A stretch of DNA of 64,000 nucleotides from Cenarchaeum sp. SB0675_bin_21. GTDB lineage: Archaea; Thermoproteota; Nitrososphaeria; Nitrososphaerales; Nitrosopumilaceae. Each line of letters begins with the position of its first letter. Positions within the stretch are counted from its first letter, which is position 1. The notes beneath the pieces were generated by a model, which saw nothing but the letters and a program-made list of their open reading frames with translations, ran no database searches and was not told the DNA's origin. A program made the translations under genes and the position numbers. Shown piece after piece: positions 1 to 53,152 of the stretch. The DNA lies in assembly GCA_009843815.1 (NCBI GenBank), contig VYCS01000005.1, forward strand, positions 1 to 64,000, in the 5' to 3' direction.

Positions 1-545
1 GCCAGATTGCCGGCAGGCGTTACATTGTACGGATCAGTAAGATCAAGTATCTGGATGCCACCGTCATATTCTGCAACGACGGCGTATGTGCGGCCATCTG
101 CCACAAGTGTGGCAATGGACAGCGCACCGGACAAGCGTAAGTCATCATTATCCGTTATACTTCCAAGAGAGGTGATACCATATGGGTGTGTTATATCGAG
201 TATCTGGACACTATTGTCACGGTATGATGTCACAGCCGCATATGTGCGACCATCTGACTCAAATAATGCTATGTCAAATGCGCCTTCGAGGGACAACGCA
301 TCACCCTTGGAGATGCTGCCCGCATACCCTATATGGATATCACCAGCGAAGATTCCGACATGCAGAGCCTGTGTGACAGATGCCATGTCTGCATAAGCGT
401 ATTGGGATGGCCATGTGAATGTAGATGCCTCGGACTCATGCCCCACGCCCAACAATCCAGTGGTGGGCTCCATTGAGAGTGCCGATACGGTCAATACTAC
501 AAGGGTTCCTACTGCAAGCACGTGGGTTCCCGCACCTACACACAT
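1..545 (-). CDS. LVIVD-type secreted beta-propeller protein, 3' part cut by window start
   Basis: The reading frame is open on the minus strand from an ATG at 545 to the window edge. The N-terminus starts MCVGAGTHVLAVGTLVV and has a hydrophobic core that looks like a signal peptide. Two propeller-type repeats follow, with motifs such as GRTYAAVTSYRDNSVQILDI and a second copy ending IQILDLTDPYN; these match the repeats of the plus-strand protein at 5512-8196. LVIVD repeats form beta-propeller blades in extracellular proteins. The ATG overlaps the tnpB stop (TAATG), and the first ~14 codons lie inside the right end of the tnpB element at 503-2022. The native start may therefore have been replaced by element sequence. 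The ligand is unknown. Confidence 0.75.
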   Translation of the reverse strand, partial: MCVGAGTHVLAVGTLVVLTVSALSMEPTTGLLGVGHESEASTFTWPSQYAYADMASVTQALHVGIFAGDIHIGYAGSISKGDALSLEGAFDIALFESDGRTYAAVTSYRDNSVQILDITHPYGITSLGSITDNDDLRLSGALSIATLVADGRTYAVVAEYDGGIQILDLTDPYNVTPAGNL

Positions 546-2022
546 TACACATCACTCCAGAGGACGACGATACATGATGTATATCGTTCCCCAGTCTGTG
601 CTTGACGCTTCTCAGGGGAGCTGATGCAAGAACCCTCCACGTCCAGGCGCCCCTCAACATGGGCGCTGCCAGTATTAGCTGGCAATGTTACATCACGTAA
701 CTTTAGTTGGCCATGCGTGGCCCCCGGGCCGAGTTTCTGCAGCCCTGCATCCTCTATGTTTGAGCCCGCATTGCAGTCGGCATGACTCGTATGGCCACAC
801 CGTTTACACAAGAACTTTCTGTCATCCCGGTTATCCTTGTGTGTATAACCGCACGAGCAGCACCGTTGGCTTGTATACGCCGCTGCAACCCAAATTATCT
901 CTCCAGCCAACTTGTACGCCAACAGTAATGCCAACAGCCCCCAGCACTGCTCCAGGATGGCCTTATTGAGACCAGATTTCTGCGCAACGTTTTTGCCGGG
1001 GTTTTCTTCCGTACCTTTGGCGGACTTTGCCATGTTTTGTATAGGAAGTTTCTCAAAGGCTGCATGTGTGGTGCTGTCCGATATAACGCGTGATATTTTA
1101 TGCGCGGTGGTCTTTCGAATGTTTGCAGCTTTGCGTTTGTTCTTGGCAGCCCTCTTAGCGGCTTTCACCCACCGTCGAGAACCAGGTTTACGATTCGTAT
1201 AGTCGGGTTTCTGCCTGCGTGACGCTATCTTTTGTGCCTTAGAGGCTGTTTTTTCGGCGTTGTTCATGCGGCGTGCCACCTTTTCGGGTATTATCATCAC
1301 ACAGTCAGGTGTGGCCACATTACCGACATTCCGGTCTATACCAATAACAGTCGGTTCCGTCACGGTTGGCTTCTCATCGGGTATATCACAGGATATGGTA
1401 ATCCTCCACCCGCCATCCGGTAGTTGAAACAGTTGGGCCGTCTTGTATCGGTAATTCAAGACGGGAAACTCCCGCGACAGTTTAACCTCGCCCATCTTGG
1501 CTATCTTGATTGTACGTGTATCGGTGAAGCGCGCTTGACCAATAGTGCCATCATGCGTTATTGTAAACGGGATGGAGATGTGACCTCCATATTTCTTAAA
1601 GTGCGGTTCACCAAACTCCGCCTTAGGTTTGATGTTGACAGCCTTCAGCTTCTCTGTTTCCACATATTGGTCATAATGCCTGCCCAAGTCATGTAATATT
1701 TGGCGCGTCACCCCGGATATGGATTGACGCATCCAACGCGGACCTGAATGGTTGCGCAAGTCCGTATACCACGCGTTTATCCTACCACGCGTAGTGTTGA
1801 CCCTCCCAGCTCGACGGTACTCCTCCTTGAAGGTTTCCAATAGTTTGTTATACACGTACCTGTCCATGCCGGCCTGTCTGGCCAACATCTCCTTCTTGAA
1901 CCCTTTACGGAATCTAACGCCGAATGTGTATGTACGTAGTACCATTAGCTTATAGTACGGTCCACATGTTTAAAAAGATAGTTGAGGTGTGATATATGGC
2001 ACCCGTCCTTGCGGGAGGAACC
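503..2022 (-). mobile_element. tnpB element with GGGTTCCT-type inverted ends
   Basis: The element is about 1520 bp and carries only a tnpB gene. Read inward, its two ends are GGGTTCCTACTGCAAGCACG (503 end) and GGTTCCTCCCGCAAGGACGG (2022 end), about 17 of 21 matching positions. The right boundary is supported independently: the sequence is shared with the copy at 51669-51938 up to GGAACCC and diverges immediately after. The flanks TACTACAA and TACTAGTC share only TACTA, so the target duplication is imperfect. The element lies directly after the stop codon of the beta-propeller gene at 2025 and runs into the start of the LVIVD gene. No tnpA is present. Confidence 0.7.
545..1945 (-). CDS. tnpB: TnpB-like RuvC nuclease
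   Basis: This 466-aa protein has the TnpB layout: an N-terminal helical domain (YVYNKLLETFKEEYR), RuvC-I with Asp in IGIDRNVG near residue 204, RuvC-II with Glu in FEKLPIQNM near 300, a four-Cys zinc ribbon (CCSCGYTH ... CKRCGH) and RuvC-III with Asp in HADCNAGSN near 390. All three acidic residues are present, so it appears intact. TnpB proteins are RNA-guided DNA nucleases whose guide RNA overlaps the 3' end of the gene. About 79 residues follow the last catalytic Asp; this tail is probably coding sequence that doubles as guide-RNA scaffold, because the same DNA is kept in the tnpB-less copy at 51.8 kb. The stop TAA overlaps the ATG of the LVIVD gene. Confidence 0.9.
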   Translation of the reverse strand: MVLRTYTFGVRFRKGFKKEMLARQAGMDRYVYNKLLETFKEEYRRAGRVNTTRGRINAWYTDLRNHSGPRWMRQSISGVTRQILHDLGRHYDQYVETEKLKAVNIKPKAEFGEPHFKKYGGHISIPFTITHDGTIGQARFTDTRTIKIAKMGEVKLSREFPVLNYRYKTAQLFQLPDGGWRITISCDIPDEKPTVTEPTVIGIDRNVGNVATPDCVMIIPEKVARRMNNAEKTASKAQKIASRRQKPDYTNRKPGSRRWVKAAKRAAKNKRKAANIRKTTAHKISRVISDSTTHAAFEKLPIQNMAKSAKGTEENPGKNVAQKSGLNKAILEQCWGLLALLLAYKLAGEIIWVAAAYTSQRCCSCGYTHKDNRDDRKFLCKRCGHTSHADCNAGSNIEDAGLQKLGPGATHGQLKLRDVTLPANTGSAHVEGRLDVEGSCISSPEKRQAQTGERYTSCIVVLWSDV

Positions 2023-3785: not shown

Positions 3786-3811
3786 TCCTATTTAAGAGTG
3801 ATTTGTGCGGA

Positions 3812-3940
3812 TTTCTCCCGCAAGGGCAGGCGGTTATCTAGACGGTCCAGATCCGGACTGCAACACGGCCCAAACCGGGTATGCACGGGCAGTCAGGATG
3901 TGTTTTGGGTCGGTTTTTTGGCAAAGTCCCACCGATAGAG
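3812..3940 (+). repeat. Decayed left half of the GGTTCCTCCCGCAA element family
   Basis: This stretch aligns with the left half of the element at 51669-51938. Shared blocks include TCTCCCGCAA against CCTCCCGCAA, CCAGATCCGGACTGCA against CCGGATCCGGGCCGCA, and GGTCGGTTTTTTGGCAAAGT against GACCGATTTTTTACGAAGT. No matching right end is visible, so it is a relict. It occupies the gap between the divergent beta-propeller and Lrp genes and is GC-richer than both. Confidence 0.6.
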
Positions 3941-3951
3941 TACTTCAAAAA

Positions 3952-4476
3952 GTGAAACAGATACCTAAATCATCAAAAATTATATACGAATTGCCAATAT
4001 TACACATATTGTCACGCATAGATGATATAGACACATTAATTTTATCTGAATTAGCCAACGATTCTTCAATATCCATCCCTAAACTATCATCAAAGATAAA
4101 CGTCAATACATCTGTGGTGTACTCTCGCATACGCAGATTACAGTCTCGGGGGCTCATACGCCGTTTTACCATAGAGGTGAACAATGCTGCCTTAGGATAT
4201 ACAGTAAAGGTACTGGCAGGTATAAAGATGGATACAAAGAAACGTAATCATATAATGCAAGAGTTATTCAACATTGATGGCGTCTTTGAGGTGGCTGAAG
4301 TGACTGGCCGCTTTGACATACTAGTTACAGCATACGCCAAGTCTCTGGAGTCGATGCATCACATGGTCTCTGAAAAGATAGGCCGTATAGATGGCGTACT
4401 CTCTTCAGAGTCGTTTATAGAGATGAAGTCACGTCAAAAGGCAATGCCATATATGGCCTCGGGTGGTGCTACTTGA
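3952..4476 (+). CDS. Lrp/AsnC-family transcriptional regulator
   Basis: An N-terminal winged helix-turn-helix (DDIDTLILSELANDSS ... VVYSRIRRLQSRGLIRRF) is followed by an AsnC ligand-binding domain (VKVLAGIKM ... VFEVAEVTGRFDILVTAYA), about 174 aa in total. Lrp-type regulators bind amino acids or related ligands and control transcription as dimers or octamers. The frame is open from an ATG at 3805, but that extension is encoded by the decayed mobile-element half and looks unlike protein. I therefore chose the GTG at 3952; a TTG near 4007 just before DDIDTLIL is also possible. The stop overlaps the start of the heme O synthase gene (TTGA), suggesting translational coupling. Confidence 0.8.
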   Translation: MKQIPKSSKIIYELPILHILSRIDDIDTLILSELANDSSISIPKLSSKINVNTSVVYSRIRRLQSRGLIRRFTIEVNNAALGYTVKVLAGIKMDTKKRNHIMQELFNIDGVFEVAEVTGRFDILVTAYAKSLESMHHMVSEKIGRIDGVLSSESFIEMKSRQKAMPYMASGGAT

Positions 4477-51626: not shown

Positions 51627-51668
51627 ATTCCATCCTTTTTTCCACTGCTTAAATATTTTGCTAAATGA

Positions 51669-51938
51669 GGTTCCTCCCGCAAAGTCAGGTGGTCGCTCTA
51701 AATGGCCCGGATCCGGGCCGCAGTCCGGCCCGAACCGGACATACGGGGGCCGCCGGGATGCGTCTTGGACCGATTTTTTACGAAGTCCCGCCGGAACGGG
51801 GCGGATGAGGGGCAAAAATCCACCCCTGAGAAACGTCAAGCACAGACCGGGGAACGAGATACTTCATGCATTGTCGTCCTCTGGCATGATGTATGATGTA
51901 TTGTAGTGCGGGAACCCCCGTGTTTGCAGTAGGAACCC
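51669..51938 (+). mobile_element. 270-bp tnpB-less element sharing both ends with the 503-2022 element
   Basis: The left end (GGTTCCTCCCGCAA) and the right ~115 bp match the tnpB element at 503-2022. The right part includes the tnpB 3' coding end; the frame still ends CIVVLWHDV against CIVVLWSDV. TAAATGAG occurs on both sides (51662-51669 and 51939-51946), a 7-8 bp target duplication. The retained 3' segment is what a TnpB guide-RNA scaffold would need, so the copy may act as a stand-alone guide RNA locus, or it may simply be a deletion derivative moved by shared ends. The 51669 base belongs either to the duplication or to the end. Confidence 0.8.
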
Positions 51939-51946
51939 TAAATGAG

Positions 51947-52243
51947 CGGGGGATTGTCGCTATTAGTACACAACCAGCTTGTCGGCCATCCGCCGAGCCT
52001 GCAGCCAAGACGCCCTGCCTGACGCCCGCATCTAACTGATGGTCGGCACAACTGGGAATTGGGATAAGACCTGCGGGGCACATCCGTTGGTCATTTGCAG
52101 GAATCTGACGCGCGCAGGCTGCTGCCGCGGCCAACATCCACCGTCACGGTTCGCCGCAGAGCGGCCTGAAAACTGAGGGGTCGAGTATGTGCTGCAAAAT
52201 CCCTCTCAACATTAAATAATGTTGTATAAAATGTGTAAATTAT
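51947..52243. other. GC-rich unexplained region with strong hairpin
   Basis: These 297 bp are GC-richer than the genes around them. A stem pairs CAGGCTGCT (52115-52123) with AGCGGCCTG (52160-52168) and extends with GCGG/CCGC. A minus-strand frame (52137-51778) rich in Ala runs through the region into the element but looks like a shadow. It may be a structural RNA, older mobile-element debris or a decayed gene. I found no hallmark of RNase P or SRP RNA. Confidence 0.35.
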
Positions 52244-53152
52244 ATGAGTATTCATCCAAGTGATATAGTCTGGTTTGATGGTAGATTCATGAATCGTAAA
52301 GATGCCTTGGTACCTGTCACCACTCACGCCCTTCACTATGGTACATCTGCCTTTGAGGGAATACGGGCGTATTGGACCGGGGATAACCTGTATGTCTTTC
52401 GATTATATGATCATATAAAACGTCTGCGCAGATCAGGTGCATTCTACAAGATGGCATTACACTATACTGATGAGCAACTAACCGATGCCATAACCGGTAC
52501 GTGCAGTAAGAACAACCTACAACAGAATACGTATATTCGACCACTATACTTTGTGGGGGAATGGGGCATTCATCTGGAGATTGACAAGAGCGCCCCCATA
52601 ATATCTGCAGTTATAGCATTTCCGCTACAGAGTATATTTGATGGCGATGGCATAGACGTGAGCATATCATCATGCCGTCGCCTCAATGATCAATTCCTGC
52701 CAACTCAGGCAAAGGTGGGCGGCAACTATCTAAACTCTATAACGGCCACCATGGAGGCAAAGATGGCCGGCTACGATGAGGCAGTCATGCTGGACCTACA
52801 TGGAAATGTAAGTGAGACTCCCGGAGCCAACATATTTCTGGTTCAGGATGGCGATCTTATAACCCCCGACAAAGCATCATCTGCTCTTGATGGTATAACT
52901 CGGGATACTGTGGACTATTTGGCAGCACAGGAAGGCATACGTACCATATATAGACGCGTAGCTCCCAGCGAGTTGTACCTATCTGATGAGGTATTCATGG
53001 TGGGCACTGCTGCGGAGGTGACTCCCATAAAGAGCGTGGGTGGCAGACCGATAAATCGTGGCAAGATAACTGAACGTATAAAAGAGATGTATGCAGATGC
53101 GGTGTCTGGTCGCCGCCAGGTTCCTGATGGGTGGCTTACACCCGTATACTGA
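52244..53152 (+). CDS. ilvE: Branched-chain amino acid aminotransferase (fold-type IV PLP)
   Basis: The 302-aa protein shows the class IV signature: IVWFDGRFMNRKDALVPV, THALHYGTSAFEGIRAY, the PLP Lys in FLPTQAKVGGNYLNSI and the EVFMVGTAAEVTPIKSV phosphate-binding region. It transfers the amino group between branched-chain keto acids and glutamate. Its stop overlaps the start of the Gfo/Idh/MocA gene. Confidence 0.92.
   Translation: MSIHPSDIVWFDGRFMNRKDALVPVTTHALHYGTSAFEGIRAYWTGDNLYVFRLYDHIKRLRRSGAFYKMALHYTDEQLTDAITGTCSKNNLQQNTYIRPLYFVGEWGIHLEIDKSAPIISAVIAFPLQSIFDGDGIDVSISSCRRLNDQFLPTQAKVGGNYLNSITATMEAKMAGYDEAVMLDLHGNVSETPGANIFLVQDGDLITPDKASSALDGITRDTVDYLAAQEGIRTIYRRVAPSELYLSDEVFMVGTAAEVTPIKSVGGRPINRGKITERIKEMYADAVSGRRQVPDGWLTPVY

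What the first reader, a model, noticed from the sequence alone, without database searches (positions are those of the whole stretch)
51662..51946. Stand-alone TnpB guide-RNA scaffold candidate (tnpB-less element)
The 270-bp element keeps the outer left end and about 115 bp of the right end of the 503-2022 tnpB element, including the tnpB 3' coding segment in frame, but nothing in between. This is the part that forms the guide-RNA scaffold in known TnpB systems, with the guide taken from DNA beyond the right end. TAAATGAG flanks both sides. It could use the TnpB from 545-1945 in trans against its own empty site, or serve as a regulatory guide, since it lies 43 bp upstream of the FNR-like gene.
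Basis: partly seen in the sequence, partly recalled or inferred. Interest (0 to 1): 0.82.

Follow-up and report, generated by a model that had tools for sequence, protein, structure and literature searches.

The report
Archaeal mini-transposon carrying a TnpB guide
A 269-base mobile DNA scrap in an archaeon has lost the gene for the RNA-guided DNA cutter TnpB but keeps the part thought to make its guide RNA, and its insertion site carries the cutter's likely recognition motif, in a setting (inverted repeats plus an 8-base target duplication) where I found no earlier report of prokaryotic TnpB.

Summary
It is a 269-bp element (51669-51937) with terminal inverted repeats GGTTCC...GGAACC and an 8-bp target duplication, CTAAATGA. 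It is chimeric: the left ~120-155 bp come from the end of a DDE (IS6/IS240-like) insertion sequence, the right ~115 bp from the tnpB element. The host carries two distant tnpB families (A, B) on the same inverted repeats, plus six tnpB-less derivatives; no Y1 TnpA was found in the three genomes of the genus. Immediately outside the 8-9-bp duplication, on the tnpB 5' side only, every family-A right end has TTG/TTA (12/12) and every family-B right end ATA/TTA (9/9, plus one in a sister genome). DDE-type copies with the same repeats and 8-bp duplications lack this (8/53 and 6/53). So motif plus right-flank guide rebuild each empty site, as in TnpB systems, and tnpB-less copies obey the rule too: the 51669 element has TTTG. 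Best reading: a stand-alone guide-RNA mini-transposon, moved by a DDE transposase and kept by TnpB-A acting in trans. Expression and cleavage are untested. The regulatory-guide idea found no second target.

The parts
51669..51937 (+). Chimeric non-autonomous element with terminal inverted repeats GGTTCCTCCCGCAA...TTGCAGTAGGAACC
   Evidence: sibling at C31:6759-7071
51661..51668 (.). Left copy of 8-bp target duplication CTAAATGA
51938..51945 (.). Right copy of 8-bp target duplication CTAAATGA; first 8 nt of the predicted guide
51657..51660 (+). Predicted TAM (TTTG; family motif TTR) immediately outside the left target duplication
   Evidence: 12/12 TTR in family-A right-end elements vs 8/53 controls
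51669..51822 (+). Left arm derived from the end of an IS6/IS240-like DDE insertion sequence
   Evidence: 73.6% over 121 bp with G002:C203 element; related solo ends at C37, C41 and window 3812
51823..51937 (+). Predicted omegaRNA scaffold: right end of tnpB element A (about 115 nt)
   Evidence: 85-91% to family-A right ends; two main helices, fold z -2.30
51938..51957 (+). Predicted guide CTAAATGAGCGGGGGATTGT (length assumed 20)
   Evidence: inference from TnpB architecture; no intact second genomic target
503..2022 (-). Family-A tnpB element in the same window, possible source of TnpB in trans
   Evidence: this copy has no clean target duplication
545..1945 (-). tnpB-A, 466 aa, RuvC residues D204/E298/D390
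   Evidence: NCBIfam guided_TnpB 4e-48; Pfam; solved TnpB relatives; dN/dS 0.21-0.24 among C10, C23 and C36 copies
3810..3934 (+). Degenerate solo end related to the left arm (no tnpB right end); within-genome control
   Evidence: 72.6% to 51671-51793

Best explanation
The 51669-51937 element is a stand-alone guide-RNA mini-transposon. Shown: it has terminal inverted repeats and an 8-bp target duplication, its left arm comes from a DDE (IS6/IS240-like) insertion sequence, its right 115 bp come from tnpB element A, and its insertion site carries the family-A motif (TTTG) immediately outside the duplication on the left side only. Inferred: a DDE transposase acting in trans moves it; a transcript through the right end gives an omegaRNA whose guide is the duplication plus downstream DNA; TnpB-A made elsewhere in the genome binds it and cuts any empty copy of the site (TTTG + CTAAATGAGCGGGG...), so that repair from the filled copy restores the element. 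Elements landing next to the motif are therefore kept or spread and others are lost, which would explain why all surviving copies carry it.
For: Copies and ends. Eight-bp duplications, including four contig-end pairs that match perfectly, and the TTR/WTA motifs. The motif is enriched only at -11..-9 of the left side, with nothing symmetric on the right. Controls: 53 flanks of copies with the same repeats, mostly DDE-type copies in two sister genomes, give 8 TTR and 6 WTA; Fisher p 3e-8 for A and 2e-7 for B. Family B has near-identical repeats at both ends, so a transposase reading the repeats alone could not tell left from right, and A and B share the repeats yet differ in motif. The tnpB-less derivatives follow the motif of their right end: dA C3 ATTG, hybrids TTTG and TTTG, dB CATA, CTTA, GTTA, and G001:C25 TTA. 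Separate deletions in C3 and C10 keep nearly the same 113-115 bp of right end. TnpB-A keeps D/E/D and is under purifying selection. No Y1 TnpA in three genomes.
Against: No transcript or cleavage data. Left and right arms of the two sibling hybrids look about equally diverged, so no extra constraint on the scaffold is seen. Covariation is no better than shuffles, and H_C10 has one A-C mismatch in a weak apical hairpin and a deleted paired base. No transposase with these exact repeats was found in the host genome; its PF13610 genes have other ends. The sister-genome DDE match is a degraded fragment below the Pfam cut-off (E 0.009). IS6-type transposition is thought to be replicative (from memory), so an empty donor site need not arise by excision; empty alleles would have to come from other cells or recombination. 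The motif set is small (22 elements) and some copies share descent.
Confidence: 0.6

Rival explanations
1. Inert mini-transposon: the element was moved by a DDE transposase and its tnpB right end is only a passenger. The outside motif is the transposase's own target preference.
For: Inverted repeats and 8-bp duplication are standard for such elements; no extra conservation of the scaffold.
Against: Same-repeat copies without a tnpB right end lack the motif (8/53, 6/53); the motif is on one side only, although family-B ends are near-identical; A and B differ (TTR vs WTA) on the same repeats; chimeras follow their right end.
Confidence: 0.15
2. TnpB-linked, but only in the past: the motif reflects selection when the copies carried tnpB or when TnpB acted, and the present short element makes no working guide RNA.
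For: H_C10 has a mismatch and a deleted base in predicted helices; several copies are decayed (C14 frameshift, C33 stop).
Against: The short element has a clean duplication and correct motif and very likely inserted after losing tnpB, since the sibling at a different site shares the chimeric join; intact TnpB-A copies remain.
Confidence: 0.2
3. Regulatory guide: the RNA directs TnpB to bind, not cut, the promoter of the neighbouring ferredoxin-NADP-reductase-like gene or another gene, like the TldR repressors.
For: The insertion lies directly upstream of that gene's TATA-like box, and its own left junction keeps TTTG plus 9 nt matching the guide.
Against: No other motif-flanked site within one mismatch of the first 12 guide bases; TnpB-A keeps all three catalytic residues.
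Confidence: 0.05

Closest known systems
IS200/IS605 and IS1341-type TnpB elements (for example ISDra2; PMC8612924)
   Same: TnpB with RuvC D/E/D, guide from right flank, motif at the left flank, empty site = motif + guide target
   Different: Here inverted repeats and an 8-bp target duplication, no Y1 TnpA found, and the motif lies 8 bp outside the left end instead of touching it
Fanzor1/Fanzor2* in eukaryotic DDE transposons (PMC10711439, PMC3627910)
   Same: TnpB-type nuclease carried on inverted-repeat elements that make target duplications
   Different: Archaeal; the duplication is variable and would form the guide's first 8 nt, whereas PMC10711439 places it in the RNA scaffold; motif lies outside the duplication
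IS6-family / IS240-like insertion sequences and their MITEs
   Same: Repeat start GGTTC..GCAA (from memory), 8-bp duplications, DDE transposase in sister genome
   Different: Carries a tnpB right end and a one-sided outside motif; cognate transposase not found in host
PATEs of haloarchaea (PMC3119063)
   Same: Transposase-free derivatives of tnpB-type elements that keep the ends
   Different: PATEs lack inverted repeats and target duplications
Stand-alone omegaRNAs and TldR repressors (from memory, not held in the library)
   Same: Guide RNA encoded away from its nuclease gene
   Different: Here on a mobile element with its own duplication and motif

Membership tests
IS200/IS605 element | Y1 TnpA transposase in the element or genome | tested here: not met
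   PF01797 absent in G000, G001 and G002; positive in 5 of 14 control genomes
IS200/IS605 element | No target duplication, subterminal hairpins instead of inverted repeats | tested here: not met
   Inverted repeats and 8-9-bp duplications in most copies
TnpB RNA-guided nuclease (protein A) | TnpB family profile and RuvC D/E/D | tested here: met
   NF040570 4e-48; D204/E298/D390
TnpB guide-RNA element | Fixed motif adjoining the target formed by the right flank in the empty site | tested here: met
   TTR 12/12 for A, WTA 9/9 (+1) for B against controls
TnpB guide-RNA element | RNA scaffold structure kept by compensatory change | tested here: inconclusive
   98.4% of cells paired, covariation equal to shuffles
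TnpB guide-RNA element | Processed RNA and cleavage | not testable with these tools
   needs RNA sequencing and biochemistry
IS6/IS240-like element or its MITE | GG-starting inverted repeats and 8-bp duplication | tested here: met
IS6/IS240-like element or its MITE | Cognate DDE transposase with the same repeats | tested here: inconclusive
   Sister genome G002:C203, PF13610 E 0.009 below cut-off, 34-40% to PF13610 genes; none with these ends in host
PATE | No inverted repeats | tested here: not met

The most novel reading that the evidence does not exclude
TnpB and a DDE transposase cooperate at insertion: the transposase cuts directly beside the TnpB motif (possibly where TnpB opens the first 8 bp), so target choice is TnpB-motif-directed and the 8-bp duplication becomes both the guide seed and a seed-length TnpB binding site at the element's own left junction, with tnpB-less guide elements sharing one TnpB in trans.
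Probability: 0.15. Interest if true: 0.92.

Novelty: new variant of a known kind. Interest (0 to 1): 0.72.

Why it matters
The paper I could read on this (PMC10711439) ties prokaryotic TnpB to the Y1 (IS200/605) or serine (IS607) transposases and describes DDE-type inverted-repeat carriers only for eukaryotic Fanzors. Two TnpB lineages on inverted-repeat, 8-bp-duplication elements in one archaeal genome would be a prokaryotic counterpart. It would show that TnpB retention works with quite different transposition chemistry, predict the recognition motifs of two untested TnpBs (TTR and WTA), and give a natural system of stand-alone guide RNAs acting in trans. All of this is directly testable.

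Tried and rejected
IS200/605 origin of the mobility: rejected, no Y1 TnpA and clear inverted repeats plus duplications. Simple internal deletion of the window's tnpB element: rejected, left arm belongs to a DDE element end. Host PF13610 transposases as the cognate enzyme: their ends differ. Scaffold covariation as a test: too little variation. Second genomic target of the guide: none convincing. Empty site next to the reductase gene in sister genomes: the G002 orthologue shares TTAAATATTTTGC and then diverges, and the G001 contig ends, so inconclusive. Viral contigs: no relatives. Bacterial relatives of TnpB-A: the Deltaproteobacterial one has hairpin-like ends as in IS605 and none of these repeats. 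Rfam: only tRNAs in the window. No structure prediction was run; the TnpB assignments rest on sequence profiles.

Full report
What is there. The window lies in an archaeal genome (G000, 1.61 Mb, 48 contigs, 46% G+C in the window). I infer an ammonia-oxidising archaeon of the Nitrosopumilaceae type from gene content; the taxonomy was not tested. The short element is 51669-51937 (269 bp), bounded by GGTTCCTCCCGCAA and TTGCAGTAGGAACC, and flanked on both sides by CTAAATGA. Its right 115 bp match the right end of the tnpB element at 503-2022. Beyond the first ~24 bp its left arm does not match that element. It matches the end of an 893-bp element in sister genome G002 (73.6% over 121 bp) whose reading frame shows a DDE transposase of the IS240/IS6 sort, degraded and only weakly scored (PF13610 E 0.009). 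So the element is a chimera. A sibling at C31:6759-7071 has the same join with 45 bp more of the tnpB end.

The wider family. The inverted repeat occurs 34 times in the genome within one mismatch. It bounds family A (the window's TnpB, 466-468 aa, five copies plus four that span contig ends), family B (a distant TnpB, 523 aa in C17, NCBIfam guided_TnpB E 8e-10), internal deletions of each (A: C3; B: C12, C24, C46), the two hybrids, and a few solo ends. Most have 8-bp target duplications. Four contig-end pairs match exactly (CACTTTAA, ATAGTCTG, AGGTCTCC, GTACTTGT), which both confirms the duplication and links contigs. Exceptions without a clean duplication are A C10 (the window copy), A C33, B C36 and B C30; hybrid C31 has a 9-bp duplication (CAGTACAAA). 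No Y1 TnpA was found in any of the three genomes of the genus.

The motif test. Reading each element in the tnpB direction, the three bases immediately outside the left duplication are TTG or TTA in all 12 elements with a family-A right end, and ATA or TTA in all nine with a family-B right end. For B C31 the element start is shifted by one base, giving duplication AAAGGGTG and motif TTA; the script shifted that row the wrong way and so counted 8 of 9, and I corrected it by hand. For the four copies without a clean duplication the same position (-11 to -9 from the left end) was read. The enrichment occurs at that offset only, and nothing symmetric follows the right duplication. As a control, 53 flanks of copies with the same repeats, mostly DDE-type copies in G002 and G001, among them about ten pairs with identical 8-bp duplications, give TTR in 8 and WTA in 6 (Fisher p 3e-8 and 2e-7). 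Seven host copies without a tnpB right end give TTR once (C18) and WTA once (C3:33869). Since family-B ends are near-identical over more than 20 bp, a transposase that reads only the repeats could not orient itself. The one-sided, family-specific motif therefore points to the tnpB right end or its product. This is the geometry known for TnpB, where motif plus right flank form the target in the empty site (PMC8612924).

tnpB-less elements. All six in this genome follow the motif of their right end: C3 ATTG, the two hybrids TTTG, C24 CATA, C12 CTTA, C46 GTTA. A separate hybrid in G001 (C25: DDE-like left end, 258 bp of family-B right end at 91%) has a 9-bp duplication, TATATCTTA, preceded by TTA. 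C3 and C10 were shortened separately yet keep nearly the same 113-115 bp of the A right end; microhomology could also explain this. Taken alone the tnpB-less sets are small (3/3, p 0.006; 4/4, p 5e-4).

Scaffold and protein. The 115-nt stretch folds into two main helices (z -2.30). Pairing holds in 98.4% of cells, but variation is too low for covariation to say anything. TnpB-A keeps D204, E298 and D390, and dN/dS is 0.21-0.24 between intact copies, so a working enzyme is plausible; the C14 copy is frameshifted near its end. The predicted guide has no other motif-flanked match within one mismatch. Its own left junction carries TTTG plus nine matching bases, probably too few for cutting.

How it most likely works. 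Steps shown: chimeric structure, inverted repeats, duplication, motif, intact TnpB-A in the genome. Steps inferred: transposition by a DDE enzyme in trans (its gene was not found in the host), transcription, loading on TnpB-A, cleavage of empty alleles and repair-driven retention, in line with the retention and gene-drive models for TnpB (PMC8612924, PMC11870625). That all surviving copies carry the motif could come from selection (copies elsewhere are lost) or from placement beside the motif; the data do not separate these.

Known or new. TnpB guides, transposase-free derivatives (PATEs, PMC3119063) and Fanzors in DDE transposons (PMC10711439) are known. In the papers I could search I found no prokaryotic TnpB on inverted-repeat elements with 8-bp duplications, nor a motif set outside the duplication. 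The library lacks most subscription papers, so this is not proof of novelty. I call it a new variant of a known kind.

Noticed in passing
L050 (G000:C17:14657-16272) and copies at C8, C30, C31, C36, C45: Second, distant TnpB family (523 aa) on near-perfect inverted repeats with 8-bp duplications and its own motif WTA.
   Followed up: yes
G000 contig ends C46/C7, C12/C23, C23/C7, C25/C47: The assembly breaks inside tnpB-A elements; matching 8-bp duplications pair the contig ends and would allow scaffolding.
   Followed up: partly
window 3810-3934: Degenerate end of a DDE-type element just upstream of a gene at about 3940-4476 that looks like an Lrp/AsnC-type regulator (by eye); no tnpB right end.
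   Followed up: partly
window 51640-51669: The insertion sits directly upstream of a TATA-like box (TTAAATATTTTG) of the reductase-like gene; the box reads in both directions and could drive transcription into the element.
   Followed up: no
window 51946-52240: G+C-rich stretch without Rfam match between the element and the next gene (52244-53152, aminotransferase-like by eye).
   Followed up: no
G002:C9, C66, C73, C122 (L172, L187, L183): Sister genome carries a further TnpB-like family, 37-45% to family B, partly at contig ends; ends and motif not worked out.
   Followed up: no
window 503-2022 flanks: The window's own tnpB copy lacks a clean duplication: left flank CTTGGACTAGTA, right flank CTTGTAGTATTG; it may be rearranged.
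   Followed up: no
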